Below are positions 14,154-64,000 of a stretch of 64,000 nucleotides of DNA, one piece after another. A program made the position numbers and the translations under genes. Below the pieces are notes generated by a model that ran no database searches, was not told the DNA's origin, and saw only the letters and a program-made list of their open reading frames with translations. This stretch comes from Acholeplasma hippikon (GTDB taxonomy: Bacteria; Bacillota_I; Bacilli_A; Acholeplasmatales; Acholeplasmataceae): NCBI RefSeq assembly GCF_900660755.1, contig NZ_LR215050.1, forward strand, positions 496,001 through 560,000, in the 5' to 3' direction. How positions within the stretch are numbered: position 1 is the stretch's first letter; each line of letters begins with the position of its first letter.

Positions 14154-14498
14154 TGGTGGAGCTGAGGGGAGTCGAACCCCTGTACGAAATTGATCTTCTA
14201 TTATAATCTACATGTTTAGTCAATTTAATAATTTAATACGTGTCTAGTAAATTGACAAAATTAACACGTACGAGCCGAGTATTGATTCTTTCGATAACCT
14301 AGGCATATTAACGAGTATACCCTACTTTCTGAGGCTAGCTAATATCGTAGGTAAATATTAGGTCGCCACGCTTAGACTATTATGCTAATGCGTAATTATA
14401 AGAATTGTTTCCGGTTATTTTAACCTCGCGTTTTTAACAGCGCTACCTGTACATGCATACAATAGATTCCTAACCCCGGCGAATCCATAAACAGCCCC
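14154..14498 (-). ncRNA. ssrA: Transfer-messenger RNA (tmRNA)
   Basis: The 5' end GGGGCTG pairs with CAGCTCC before an encoded ACCA 3' end, and the T arm reads GGGGTTCGACTCCCC, giving the alanyl-tRNA-like domain. The tag frame (14412 down to 14383) is GGA AAC AAT TCT TAT AAT TAC GCA TTA GCA then TAA TAG, so the proteolysis tag is A-GNNSYNYALA, ending in the usual ALA. It rescues stalled ribosomes. The start is set by the acceptor stem; the promoter lies upstream, so a short 5' leader is cut off by RNase P. The IS sits 63 bp past the 3' end. Confidence 0.95.
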
Positions 14499-32204: not shown

Positions 32205-32563
32205 GAAATTCAAGTGTGCATAAGCCATGTTCTGTAGAAGATAAATCTTCTTGTGACTATTAATCTCAGGGTTTACCTGCAAGTTATACATTGCTGTACT
32301 TCTCGTGCCCCTACCAAATTTGGGTTGCTAGCTTGAGGGGTTTACCGCGTTTCATCCTATATATTTCTATATAGACTCGTCTCTGTGGCACGTTAAGATG
32401 CTTGTTCATAGTTTCCCTTAGAATGTTGCATCGCCGTTACGATTACTCGTACCCAGAGTTATTTATTCCTCTGGCACAAACACTACATACCACGAGGGTA
32501 TGTGCTAGCATGGACTTTCCTAACAAACACGAAGTTTGCTCAGTCACCTTCCACTTAAATTCC
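32205..32563 (-). ncRNA. rnpB: RNase P RNA (M1 RNA)
   Basis: About 359 nt. The 5' end AATTTAAGTG pairs with 3' CACTTGAATT as helix P1. Conserved stretches include GAAGGTGACTGAGC near the 5' end, GGAAAGTCCATGCTAGCACA (CR-I region) and ACAGAACATGGCTTA at the 3' end (CR-V). It is the catalytic RNA for tRNA and tmRNA 5' processing. It lies 24 bp after pnp on the same strand, with a TGATAAAAT extended -10 box of its own in the gap. Confidence 0.93.
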
Positions 32564-57059: not shown

Positions 57060-57635
57060 ATGTTAGGATATCCAACCAAAAAGAAAACTCAACCAAAAGT
57101 AGTTAACATGGCAAATCTAGGAATGACTTTAGAAAGCGATATTGAAGCAACAAATCAATATTACTTAACCCATAATATCGCTGTTATTCATAAAAAGCCA
57201 ACACCAATTCAGGTTGTTAATGTTAGTTACCCAGCACGTAATAAGGCTAAAATTACTGAGGCTTATTATCGTACGCCTTCAACAACAGACTTTAATGGAT
57301 TATATAAAGGCAAATACATTGATTTTGATGCGAAAGAAACCAACTCAAAGACTTCTTTCCCACTAGCAAACGTTCATGAACACCAAATTATCCATCTAAA
57401 TGATGTTAATAATCACGGTGGTATTGCTTTTTTGATTGTTGGTTGGAAGATCTACAACGAATATTATTTATTACCATTTAAAGATTTAAAAATATTTTGG
57501 GATGAATCAAGAAATGGTGGTAGAAAATCTATTCCATATGATTTTTTTAAAGAAAAAGGAATTACCATTCCTTTCTCATATCAACCTCGATTAGATTATT
57601 TAAAAGCTATTGACATATTATTGGGCCAAGTTTAA
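57060..57635 (+). CDS. recU: Holliday junction resolvase RecU
   Basis: 191 residues: GMTLESDIEATNQYY, IDFDAKETNSKTSFPLANVHEHQ (catalytic Asp-Glu-x-Lys nuclease core) and GIAFLIVGWK. It resolves recombination junctions and acts with RuvAB. Shine-Dalgarno is weak (ACGAGGTG). Its 3' end overlaps the convergent thiT by 18 bp. Confidence 0.92.
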   Translation: MLGYPTKKKTQPKVVNMANLGMTLESDIEATNQYYLTHNIAVIHKKPTPIQVVNVSYPARNKAKITEAYYRTPSTTDFNGLYKGKYIDFDAKETNSKTSFPLANVHEHQIIHLNDVNNHGGIAFLIVGWKIYNEYYLLPFKDLKIFWDESRNGGRKSIPYDFFKEKGITIPFSYQPRLDYLKAIDILLGQV

Positions 57636-58247
57636 TTGGCCTTTTATTATCTTTAATTGTCTAAAGGACAATAAAACAATCACATTAATTGTTATAAAAG
57701 TTGTTAATGTATAAATCATATTATATATACCTGAATAGATAAATGCGCTATTATTTACACTCTCTAATAAGTTATTTGTCCATTCGTTACTTGTTGCATA
57801 GGATGCCCATAATAAAGCACCAACAATTGTTGAACTTAACCATCTTACCATTAATGCGACAAATGATCCTAAAACAAAGTGTAATCTTTTATCTAAACTT
57901 TGTCTAAATAAGCCGGTTAAACCTAGCGCACCAAATGCAATCATATAGTCTAACATAAAAACTGTTACTGCTTCTTTTAAGTCACTAGCAAAATACGCTA
58001 ATGCATAACCATCTAAAAAGAAAGTTAACAGTCCATATACAACTGCACCAAGTATACCGTATCTTGGACCTACAAATATACCAATCATCATGACAGGTAA
58101 TAAACTAATGTTAAATAATCTGCCACCTAAAGGCATCGATAAATTTAACCCTGGGATTAACCCCGTAATGATATCTAATGCGACTGCAATCGCAAGTAAT
58201 GTAGATACTAGAACTATTTTTCTAATACCATTGATGTTTCTATTCAT
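57618..58247 (-). CDS. thiT: Thiamine ECF transporter S component
   Basis: 209 residues with six hydrophobic helices; VPVMM-like segment ISLLPVMMIGIFVGPRYGILGAVVYGLL and FMLDYMIAFGALGL match ThiT. The TPP riboswitch in its leader confirms the substrate. It binds thiamine with high affinity and shares the EcfA1A2T energising module with other S components such as the one at 15 kb. No other thiamine genes are near. Confidence 0.93.
   Translation of the reverse strand: MNRNINGIRKIVLVSTLLAIAVALDIITGLIPGLNLSMPLGGRLFNISLLPVMMIGIFVGPRYGILGAVVYGLLTFFLDGYALAYFASDLKEAVTVFMLDYMIAFGALGLTGLFRQSLDKRLHFVLGSFVALMVRWLSSTIVGALLWASYATSNEWTNNLLESVNNSAFIYSGIYNMIYTLTTFITINVIVLLSFRQLKIIKGQLNLAQ
57624..57650 (+). 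terminator. Terminator of recU, within the thiT 3' end
   Basis: GGCCAA pairs with TTGGCC around GTTTAA, then TTTTATTAT; it overlaps the last codons of both convergent genes. Confidence 0.7.
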
Positions 58248-58296: not shown

Positions 58297-58316
58297 AGTG
58301 AACGTTAAAAGATATA

Positions 58317-58405
58317 ACTTTCCCTCCGCTGGTATAACCCAGATCAGGTTTGCGGGTCGATTATGAATTAAATCCTCTCAGCCAATCTATTTGACTCCCC
58401 GAAGT
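58317..58405 (-). promoter_or_regulatory. TPP riboswitch (THI element)
   Basis: On the minus strand: ACTTCGGGGAGTC, GGCTGAGAGGAT, ACCCGCAAACCTGATCTGGGTTATACCAGCGGAGGGAA are the conserved THI-box blocks, in order. With TPP bound the following terminator forms and thiT is off. Confidence 0.97.
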
Positions 58406-58549
58406 GATCGTATTTATTATAACAAAGTACCCTAATTAACTCAAATTATTCGCTTTTATAAACATCAAATAACTAAAAATAATTTAAAATAATTTCATTG
58501 ACATTTATGATAATTTAAACTATAATTTAATTGTAAGGAGTGAGAAAAT

Positions 58550-62000: not shown

Positions 62001-62049
62001 ATTTTAATTCCCCTTTTACTAAAATTATAACAAATTTTTGTAAAATAAA

Positions 62050-62199
62050 AACCCAGAAAGCGGTGAGAATCTGTTAAGTACAGGTGGGAACTTCCTTTTC
62101 GCTTACATCGGGATTCCAAATTAATGGCGTTCAACACACAGTAAACGTTTAAGATCCCATTCTCATAAATATGGGTTCCACCGGTTGCTTCCTAGGCAC
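62050..62199 (-). ncRNA. Abundant-type small RNA of ~146 nt, class unassigned (6S-like rod?)
   Basis: A near-consensus promoter ends about 7 bp before the first stem. CCTAGGAAGC (62196-62187) pairs with GCTTTCTGGG (62061-62052), 10 bp, followed by TTTTTATTTT, so closing stem and terminator coincide. Inside, ACCGGTGGAA pairs with TTCCCACCTGT (one mismatch, one bulge) and CCCAT/ATGGG forms a hairpin. No Shine-Dalgarno-plus-ORF is present. A long closing stem with inner bubble recalls 6S RNA, but 146 nt is short and the identity is unproven. Confidence 0.65.
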
Positions 62200-62203
62200 T
62201 TAT

Positions 62204-62232
62204 AATTTACATCTAATAGACCCTTTTGTCAA
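62204..62232 (-). promoter_or_regulatory. Strong promoter of the 62-kb small RNA
   Basis: TTGACA (62227-62232, perfect -35), 17 bp, TAAATT (62204-62209), reading left. It overlaps the region just after the galU stop, and no protein gene starts downstream before 62000. Confidence 0.75.
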
Positions 62233-62241
62233 GTCTTATGT

Positions 62242-63111
62242 TTATTTGTTAACCTTACTTTTAAGTAATGCACTAACTTCTTCACTTAAGTCAGGACGGT
62301 CTAAAGCAAAGTCAATGATAGCTTCAATGTATCCAACTTTTGATCCAATATCATATCGTTTACCTTCCATATCAAGTGAGTAAACTTCTTCATCATTCAT
62401 TAATTTTAAGATTGAATCTGTTAATTGAATCTCACCACCAGCACCACGTTCTTGTGTTTCAAGTAATTCAAAAATTCTTGGTGTTAAAATATAGCGACCA
62501 GAGATTGCTGAGTTTGATGGTGCTTTACCTTGAGGTTTTTCTACAACCCCTTTTAATTTAATTACATTTGAACCATCTTGGTTTTCACTCGGAATACAAA
62601 TACCATAACGTTTTGTTTCACTATCAGGCACATTTTGTGTTCCAACAATTGATGCCCCTTTTAATTCATATGCATCAATTAATTGACGCAAAGCAGGTTT
62701 AATTTTCGAAACATAAACATCATCTCCTAATAAGACTGCAAATGTTTCATTGCCTACAAATGATTTTGCTTGTAAGACCGCATGTCCTAAGCCTAATTGT
62801 TCATGTTGAATCACATAAGACATCTTTACGCCTTTTGAGCATTCTTGAACTAATTTTAAATCATCTAGTTTATTTTTATCAATTAAGAATTTTTCTAGTT
62901 CTGCATTTGACTCAAAATAACCACCGATTGATGTTTTATTTTCAGAAATAACTAGTAAAATTTCTTCAACCCCTGATTGAACTGCTTCTTCAACAATATA
63001 TGATAAAGCAGGACGATCAATAATCGGTAACATTTCCTTTGGTACAGATTTTGTAATTGGTAAGAATCTTGTTCCCCATCCTGCAGCTGGAATAACAGCT
63101 TTTTTAATCAT
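62242..63111 (-). CDS. galU: UTP-glucose-1-phosphate uridylyltransferase
   Basis: 289 residues from ATG 63111 (Shine-Dalgarno GAAGGAG at 9 bp; the upstream ATG 63129 overlaps it). AGWGTRFLPITKSVPKEMLPIIDRP is the nucleotide-binding start, then GLGHAVLQAK, LLGDD and VEKPQGKAPSNSAISGRYILTP. It makes UDP-glucose for glycolipids (mono- and diglucosyl-diacylglycerol are major lipids in acholeplasmas) or capsule. Overlaps the preceding gene by 8 bp. Confidence 0.95.
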   Translation of the reverse strand: MIKKAVIPAAGWGTRFLPITKSVPKEMLPIIDRPALSYIVEEAVQSGVEEILLVISENKTSIGGYFESNAELEKFLIDKNKLDDLKLVQECSKGVKMSYVIQHEQLGLGHAVLQAKSFVGNETFAVLLGDDVYVSKIKPALRQLIDAYELKGASIVGTQNVPDSETKRYGICIPSENQDGSNVIKLKGVVEKPQGKAPSNSAISGRYILTPRIFELLETQERGAGGEIQLTDSILKLMNDEEVYSLDMEGKRYDIGSKVGYIEAIIDFALDRPDLSEEVSALLKSKVNK

Positions 63112-64000
63112 GCTTAAAATCTCCTTCATAATATACTAATATTCTCACATAAGTTGCTCGGTAAATCATTGCATTTAAAAGTACATCTCTTATCTTCTGT
63201 TCCATTAAGAATTTTGAATTTGTTGTTTTAACAGATACTCTTGCGGCGTAATACTGATTTGTATCAAACTCTTCCATTCTTGCTACATAATATTGCTTAC
63301 TCAAGGCTTCAATATCCTCAAGATTTTTAAATGAGAAGATGATTGATACAATTAATTCTTTTTGATAAATACTTAAATCATCTAATAATTCTGATAACTT
63401 TAATGCTCTTGCTACAATATATTCAGTCTTATGGAAAAATGTCATTTCATAAGTTTGTTTATATTTATCTTCATAAATACTACTATCAACTTTTGTTGAA
63501 AAGAGTCCTTCCAAGAAGATAATAAATTTATTTGCTTTTCTATAATCTTTTGTATAAAACTCAGTATAGAGTTCTATATTTTTTCCATTAAATGTATAAG
63601 CTGTAATCATAAAATGTTTACAGTTAGCATAAAATAAAATATCTTTTAATTTTCTTTCGAAATTTTTTAAATCAGATTTGAATCTATAGATACCAACTAA
63701 CGTGTAAGTTTCATTATACACAAAAGGCTCGTAAAATTCATTAGCATAAACATATCTTTTATCTGCTGGGTCATAATATTCATATGCATTATAATCTACA
63801 ATCTTTAGTGAATTGATTTTATCAAATATTAAATACCCAATTCCCATTAAGGTAATTGCAATTGATAAGAAAAGTTTTGAATAAAATGCTAGACCAATCA
63901 TATTAATTAAAAAGATGATTGGAATAAAGGTAAAGGTTATTGACACCCTTATCATTGCGGTAAATCCACTCTTCATTAAAATAAATGCTAAAACGAACAT
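63104..64000 (-). CDS. Hypothetical membrane protein, probably truncated by the window edge
   Basis: 298 residues in view; the frame begins at the last base of the window, so the true start may be further right. Three hydrophobic segments (about 1-10, 20-40, 42-60) precede a ~235-residue cytosolic domain rich in Tyr, Phe and Lys (NEFYEPFVYNETYTLVGIYRF, EFYTKDYRKANKFIIFLEG). I do not recognise the family. Overlaps galU by 8 bp, so both are co-translated. Confidence 0.65.
   Translation of the reverse strand: MFVLAFILMKSGFTAMIRVSITFTFIPIIFLINMIGLAFYSKLFLSIAITLMGIGYLIFDKINSLKIVDYNAYEYYDPADKRYVYANEFYEPFVYNETYTLVGIYRFKSDLKNFERKLKDILFYANCKHFMITAYTFNGKNIELYTEFYTKDYRKANKFIIFLEGLFSTKVDSSIYEDKYKQTYEMTFFHKTEYIVARALKLSELLDDLSIYQKELIVSIIFSFKNLEDIEALSKQYYVARMEEFDTNQYYAARVSVKTTNSKFLMEQKIRDVLLNAMIYRATYVRILVYYEGDFKHD

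What the first reader, a model, noticed from the sequence alone, without database searches (positions are those of the whole stretch)
62050..62232. Strongly promoted ~146-nt RNA downstream of galU
A perfect TTGACA, 17-bp spacer, a 10-bp closing helix that doubles as terminator, and inner helices show an independent RNA gene. I could not match it to SRP, tmRNA, RNase P or a T-box; a short 6S RNA is the best guess.
Basis: partly seen in the sequence, partly recalled or inferred. Interest (0 to 1): 0.5.

Follow-up and report, generated by a model that had tools for sequence, protein, structure and literature searches.

The report
Divergent short 6S RNA in Acholeplasma
This is a small RNA gene that looks like a shortened, strongly diverged 6S RNA, the molecule many bacteria use to imitate a promoter and hold back RNA polymerase, and the standard database model does not recognise it in this bacterium or its relatives.

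Summary
The minus strand carries TTGACA, a 17-nt spacer, TAAATT and a ~150-nt RNA (about 62199-62045) closed by a 10-bp helix before a T run. Rfam's 6S model covers the RNA full length but far below its cut-off (16.5 vs 46.4 bits) and misses it genome-wide. A covariance model built from homologues finds it in 75 of 101 relatives and 106 of 395 genomes of the class. Outside the order, 31 of 32 genomes with listed matches of both models have them at one place and strand, 22 over Rfam's cut-off; the exception has two 6S-like loci. Covariation is strong (28 of 36 pairs with two-sided changes), and the apical signature aligns with E. coli ssrS. SRP RNA, RNase P and tmRNA lie elsewhere. None of 11 genomes of a reduced, phytoplasma-like genus matches. 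Polymerase binding and pRNA synthesis are inferred. New member of a known kind, notable mainly for hiding below the Rfam threshold.

The parts
62227..62232 (-). -35 hexamer TTGACA
   Evidence: exact in 36 of 49 distinct homologues
62204..62209 (-). -10 hexamer TAAATT, 17 nt from the -35
   Evidence: TAAATT is the commonest -10 (21 of 49), spacer 17 nt in 46 of 49
62045..62199 (-). 6S-like RNA, about 150 nt; start estimated at 62199-62195 from the -10, end at the T run
   Evidence: R1 and R2 match G000:C1:558045-558199 minus, 113.7 and 114.4 bits
62187..62196 (-). P1 closing stem, 5' arm CCUAGGAAGC
   Evidence: 10 pairs, 96.9% of cells paired, 7 pairs with two-sided changes
62052..62061 (-). 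P1 closing stem, 3' arm GCUUUCUGGG, also the terminator stem
   Evidence: T run at 62043-62051
62175..62182 (-). P2 5' arm GGUGGAAC, next to the central bubble
   Evidence: 95.0% of cells paired; GGAACCCA nearly invariant
62062..62071 (-). P2 3' arm GAUUCUCACC with one bulged U
62159..62174 (-). 5' strand of the central bubble
   Evidence: unpaired in the conserved structure
62171..62184 (-). predicted pRNA template; U at 62171 aligns with U44 of E. coli ssrS; pRNA would read as the + strand from 62171 to 62184
   Evidence: alignment; U44 as the E. coli start is recalled; prediction, uncertain by 1-3 nt
62071..62083 (-). 3' strand hairpin CUGU-ACUUA-ACAG in the central bubble
   Evidence: stem of 4 bp or more in 39 of 49 homologues against 22.2 +/- 3.0 in shuffled segments; no covariation for one fixed hairpin
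62151..62158 (-). P3 5' arm GGGAUCUU
   Evidence: helix 3: all 7 pairs with two-sided changes, 85.0% paired
62086..62093 (-). P3 3' arm AAGUUCCC
62141..62147 (-). P4 5' arm CGUUUAC
   Evidence: helix 4: all 6 pairs with two-sided changes, 93.5% paired
62100..62106 (-). P4 3' arm GUAAGCG
62112..62132 (-). P5/P6 apical hairpin GAACGCC...GGAAUC, the strongest 6S signature
   Evidence: helices 5 and 6; aligned to RF00013 and to E. coli ssrS
62043..62051 (-). T run of the intrinsic terminator

Best explanation
A single-copy gene for a compact, diverged 6S (SsrS) RNA with its own promoter and terminator. Shown by sequence comparison: it is homologous to 6S RNA and keeps its rod shape (closing stem, open central bubble, apical arm with the same asymmetric internal loops). 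Inferred from the known mechanism of 6S RNA: the rod mimics an open promoter, binds RNA polymerase carrying the main sigma factor and holds back transcription when cells slow down. When nucleotides return, polymerase copies a short pRNA starting near 62171 across the invariant GGAACCC element. The pRNA displaces helix P2, the freed 3' strand can fold into its own hairpin, and the RNA is released.
For: RF00013 aligns to the whole RNA (positions 1-187 of 187) at 16.5 bits on the right strand. In 4 of 17 homologue loci scanned it scores 21.8-27.7 bits at the homologue. Eight of the 9 weak RF00013 matches among 101 genomes lie at the place that R1 finds (searches compared by eye; four of these eight loci were in R1's own alignment, four were not). 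Outside the order, 31 of the 32 genomes with listed matches of both R1 and RF00013 have them at the same place and strand, 22 over Rfam's cut-off. The exception, G254, has two loci that both models recognise. R2 finds 28 of 30 loci over the RF00013 cut-off at E <= 0.1 (tallied by eye). R3, made without the four rows that RF00013 had brought in, finds 10 of those 30 at E <= 0.01 and 21 at E <= 1 (tallied by eye). Covariation over 49 distinct sequences: 218 cells changed on both sides against 58.8 +/- 6.5 shuffled, and 93.1% paired against at most 46.0% when slid. The signature CC.A, GUG.GAA.GCC, GGAA.CC.A, CCCAC aligns from the window to E. coli ssrS with few departures. One match in the own genome.
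Against: RF00013's gathering score is not reached by the window RNA (16.5 of 46.4) or by any of 101 genomes, and RF00013 gives nothing at E <= 10 in the own genome. R1, R2 and R3 do not match E. coli 6S (L136) at their thresholds. R2 misses 2 of 30 reference 6S loci (L086, L087). The minimum-energy fold of the window RNA (-43.1) is not the 6S structure (-33.8), though the latter is the covarying one. The 3' hairpin has no covariation support and is weak in several members of the genus. No expression, polymerase binding or pRNA data exist here.
Confidence: 0.93

Rival explanations
1. A cis-acting leader or attenuator of the gene downstream (the 200-aa membrane protein or the M42 peptidase), or a 3' element of galU.
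For: In 18 of 24 named loci an M42 peptidase gene is among the first two reading frames downstream on the same strand, often within tens of bases. galU is the neighbour upstream here, in 3 of 24 named loci and in 8 of 25 further loci.
Against: The downstream gene changes between lineages (DEAD-box helicase in L068, Fic protein in L072) and in the window a 200-aa gene lies between RNA and peptidase, while the RNA keeps promoter, terminator and structure. The RNA ends in its own terminator stem. It is homologous to a trans-acting family.
Confidence: 0.03
2. A polymerase-binding relative that works like Ms1 (binds core enzyme without sigma), or otherwise differs from classic 6S in target.
For: It is shorter than the 187 positions of RF00013 and below its cut-off. 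Ms1 is described as structurally related to 6S while binding the core enzyme (PMC9130861, abstract and passages).
Against: Ms1 is known from Actinobacteria (PMC9130861, passages). The window RNA keeps the 6S signatures and an invariant element at the expected pRNA template. Its closest over-cut-off relatives are 6S.
Confidence: 0.03
3. Another housekeeping RNA (SRP RNA, RNase P, tmRNA) or a T-box.
For: Size and own promoter are compatible with SRP RNA.
Against: SRP RNA lies at G000:C1:1031284-1031377 over its cut-off (49.5 bits). RNase P and tmRNA lie at 32216-32555 and 14154-14498. No T-box match was reported. R2 and R3 do not match the SRP locus.
Confidence: 0.01

Closest known systems
6S / SsrS RNA (Rfam RF00013), as in E. 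coli ssrS and Bacillus subtilis 6S-1
   Same: Closing stem, central bubble, apical arm with the same asymmetric loops; signature GUG.GAA.GCC / GGAA.CC / CCCAC; covarying rod; own promoter; one copy here.
   Different: About 150 nt against 183 in E. coli; closing arm reduced to a 10-bp stem that is also the terminator; sequence too far from the Rfam model to reach its cut-off.
6S RNAs of distant genomes of the same class over the RF00013 cut-off (e.g. G389, G263, G169)
   Same: Matched at the same place by both the Acholeplasma-derived model and RF00013; these three matches are about 150-170 nt long.
   Different: P1 and P2 sequences differ; neighbouring genes differ.
Ms1 RNA of Actinobacteria
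   Same: RNA related to 6S that binds RNA polymerase (PMC9130861, abstract and passages seen).
   Different: Binds the core enzyme, known from Actinobacteria; no direct comparison was made here.

Membership tests
6S / SsrS RNA | rod with closing stem, large central bubble and apical arm | tested here: met
   covariation on 49 distinct homologues, six helices 85.0-96.9% paired; the window RNA's minimum-energy fold differs
6S / SsrS RNA | conserved sequence at the bubble edges and apical loops | tested here: met
   columns invariant from the window to E. coli ssrS; alignment to RF00013
6S / SsrS RNA | homology to accepted members | tested here: met
   31 of 32 shared places, 22 over the cut-off; check without RF00013-derived rows
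6S / SsrS RNA | Rfam gathering score of RF00013 (a database criterion, not a biological feature) | tested here: not met
   16.5 of 46.4 bits; 0 of 101 genomes over it; no match in the own genome at E <= 10
6S / SsrS RNA | independent gene with promoter and terminator | tested here: met
   by sequence only, no expression data
6S / SsrS RNA | 3' strand hairpin or collapse helix that can form after pRNA synthesis | tested here: inconclusive
   enriched over shuffled segments, no covariation
6S / SsrS RNA | binds sigma-loaded RNA polymerase | not testable with these tools
   needs co-purification
6S / SsrS RNA | template for pRNA synthesis | not testable with these tools
   predicted start at 62171 from the alignment; needs small-RNA sequencing
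SRP RNA (RF00169/RF01854) | match of the family model at this locus | tested here: not met
   no match here; SRP RNA at C1:1031254-1031431
RNase P (RF00011) and tmRNA (RF00023) | match of the family model at this locus | tested here: not met
   found elsewhere in the window
cis-regulatory leader | constant association with one downstream gene | tested here: not met
   downstream genes vary
Ms1 RNA | binds RNA polymerase core without sigma | not testable with these tools
   needs co-purification

The most novel reading that the evidence does not exclude
The order around Acholeplasma carries its own compact 6S lineage that annotation by the Rfam cut-off misses entirely, kept in the larger-genome lineages and lost in the genome-reduced, phytoplasma-like genus. 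The polymerase-mimic brake would then have been discarded on the way to obligate life in hosts.
Probability: 0.5. Interest if true: 0.5.

Novelty: new member of a known kind. Interest (0 to 1): 0.4.

Why it matters
6S RNA is a global regulator, and annotation that relies on the Rfam cut-off would report it absent from this whole group: 0 of 101 genomes pass it. The group-specific models recover it in 82 of 101 (75, 7 more at E <= 1.1e-4, which re-searched 25 of the 26 misses). Acholeplasma would offer a small 6S RNA in a small genome for work on the minimal promoter mimic. The contrast with the reduced genus (0 of 11) makes loss of 6S in host-dependent lineages testable.

Tried and rejected
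Minimum-energy folding alone misled: it pairs UGAGAAU with AUUCUCA across the bubble, which is not conserved among relatives (alignment). It might be a collapsed form, but that was not pursued.

RF00013 alone fails: no match in the own genome and 0 of 101 genomes over the cut-off. One of its 9 weak matches (G013, L032) is not at the R1 place and looks like chance.

The first alignment A1 used 23 of the 35 loci then held. Left out: L003 and L019 (missed by my pattern, later in A2), L017 (contig end), L023 and L026 (duplicates), L027, L029, L035 (divergent, later in A2), L024 and L025 (chance words of 20-22 nt), L032 (chance), L034 (short match). Four A1 rows (L028, L030, L031, L033) had been found through RF00013, so R1 is not fully independent of it; R3 was made without them and still finds reference 6S loci. 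R3 also gave one short match outside a 6S place (L085:1193-1224, E 0.044); R2 gave the same one. A2 was made from 52 loci that I chose among those held, not from all matches.

In one search the 37 R1 matches inside the order were left out before the count, and the RF00013 table was cut, so 32 is a lower bound of the genomes with both.

Rfam evalue scans gave microRNA, lncRNA and scaRNA matches of 10-14 bits to this stretch, rejected as chance. Phage records: no match. Literature: '6S RNA' with Acholeplasma, Tenericutes, Mollicutes, phytoplasma, and Mycoplasma with ssrS, and two wider searches (listings seen) showed no report of 6S RNA in this group. Passages of PMC8632094 and PMC3831623 were read: the first treats another Acholeplasma motif; the second discusses E. 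coli 6S and says no anti-sigma protein homologues were found in OY-M phytoplasma. The main survey of 6S RNA (Wehner et al. 2014, doi 10.4161/rna.29894) is not held, so it may already list candidates here.

Full report
What was claimed and what is there. The finding describes a promoter, a closing helix that is also a terminator, and inner helices downstream of galU. All are present, on the minus strand: TTGACA at 62232-62227, 17 nt, TAAATT at 62209-62204, then a ~150-nt RNA ending in a 10-bp helix (62196-62187 with 62061-62052) and a T run (62051-62043). galU (62242-63129, minus; Pfam NTP_transferase and best NCBIfam match galU, just under that model's cut-off) ends just upstream. The fold is somewhat better than shuffled sequence (z -2.53).

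Where it occurs. The window is G000:C1:496001-560000 of a 1.47-Mb genome. blastn with the region matches 25 of 101 genomes, the own one included, two of them (G083, G100) by chance words only. A scan of named genomes with a motif of the RNA gave 24 contigs, among them Acholeplasma laidlawii QMP CG1-1743, Acholeplasma granularum ATCC 19168 and Peloplasma aerotolerans; the other titles are mostly uncultured Acholeplasmataceae, Tenericutes, Mycoplasmatota and Bacillota.

Conservation and structure. 23 homologues were aligned (A1) and a covariance model with a hand-set structure was built (R1). R1 finds the RNA in 75 of 101 genomes, with a single match in all but one of them (G080 has two). 52 matches realigned to the model (A2; 49 distinct) give 93.1% of cells paired, 28 of 36 pairs with two-sided changes and 218 such cells, against 58.8 +/- 6.5 after shuffling; sliding the partners by 1-3 columns drops pairing to 33.2-46.0%. 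The shuffles ignore relatedness, but the slid controls keep it; A2 was fitted to a near-identical structure, which favours it. The element GGAACCCA at the edge of the bubble is nearly invariant.

Family. Rfam's 6S model spans the RNA but scores 16.5 bits against a cut-off of 46.4, and a search of the whole genome with RF00013 reports nothing. In the 101 genomes RF00013 gives 9 weak matches, none over the cut-off; 8 of the 9 lie where R1 finds the RNA. In 395 genomes of the class R1 matches 106 and RF00013 matches 152 at E <= 1, 102 over the cut-off. Of the 69 R1 matches outside the order, 32 genomes also have a listed RF00013 match; 31 are at the same place and strand, 22 of them over the cut-off. 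In the exception, G254, each model had picked a different one of two loci that both recognise. R2, built from A2, recovers 28 of 30 reference loci at E <= 0.1 (misses L086 and L087). R3, built without the four rows found through RF00013, recovers 10 of 30 at E <= 0.01 and 21 at E <= 1. None of the models reaches E. coli ssrS, but a plain alignment places the same invariant letters in it. I conclude that the RNA is homologous to 6S.

Exclusions. SRP RNA is at C1:1031284-1031377 (49.5 bits, over the cut-off; the large-SRP model matches the same place below its cut-off). RNase P and tmRNA are elsewhere in the window. A cis-regulatory role is unlikely: the upstream ~490-aa protein gene is near in 23 of 24 named loci and M42 peptidase downstream in 18 of 24, but in more distant relatives the downstream gene changes, while galU is the upstream neighbour in 8 of 25 there. 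Promoter and spacer are kept.

Mechanism. Shown: a conserved rod with an open bubble, a promoter and a terminator. Inferred from 6S biology (PMC12005410, passages; PMC8414754, passages and section 11): promoter mimicry, binding of sigma-loaded polymerase, pRNA synthesis and release. The U at 62171 aligns with position 44 of E. coli ssrS (that U44 is the E. coli start is recalled), so the pRNA should read AUGGGUUCCACC from the + strand at 62171. Most relatives have A instead of U there, so the start may shift by 1-3 nt. The 3' strand can form a hairpin of 4 bp or more in 39 of 49 sequences against 22.2 +/- 3.0 in shuffled segments. One fixed four-pair hairpin shows no covariation, so this step is suggestive only.

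Loss in a reduced genus. R1 gives no match in the 11 genomes of genus g8 (0.5-0.9 Mb, completeness 90-99), and R2 with laxer filters gives only E >= 0.5, while the same search recovers 7 of the other 14 re-searched genomes at E <= 1.1e-4. Size and family position suggest phytoplasmas; no call names them. Divergence beyond reach is not excluded.

Novelty. It is a new member of a known kind: short, and below the Rfam cut-off throughout the 101 genomes. My literature searches found no report of it, but the main 6S survey is not held.

Noticed in passing
window 14154-14498 (-): tmRNA by Rfam (155.1 bits), although ARAGORN reported no tRNA or tmRNA in the window.
   Followed up: no
window 32216-32555 (-): RNase P RNA of class B (237.7 bits).
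   Followed up: no
window 58304-58411 (-): TPP riboswitch (70.3 bits) just upstream of a 209-aa membrane protein gene (57618-58247), probably a thiamine transporter subunit (name by inference).
   Followed up: no
window 63104-64000 (-): A protein cut by the window end (298 aa seen) with no Pfam or NCBIfam match has a relative upstream of the 6S-like RNA in 23 of 24 named loci, with galU between in 3.
   Followed up: partly
L162 and L163 (genome G254): Two separate 6S-like loci in one genome, both recognised by RF00013 and R2, like the paralogues 6S-1 and 6S-2 of Bacillus subtilis.
   Followed up: partly
genus g8 genomes (G014, G027, G036, G042, G046, G050, G052, G054, G056, G058, G060): No convincing match of R1 or R2 in this reduced-genome genus of the same family; probable loss of 6S RNA.
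   Followed up: partly
L096 and L104: A ThiF-family gene lies directly downstream of over-cut-off 6S RNAs in these distant genomes; from memory, B. subtilis 6S-1 has a ThiF-family neighbour too.
   Followed up: no
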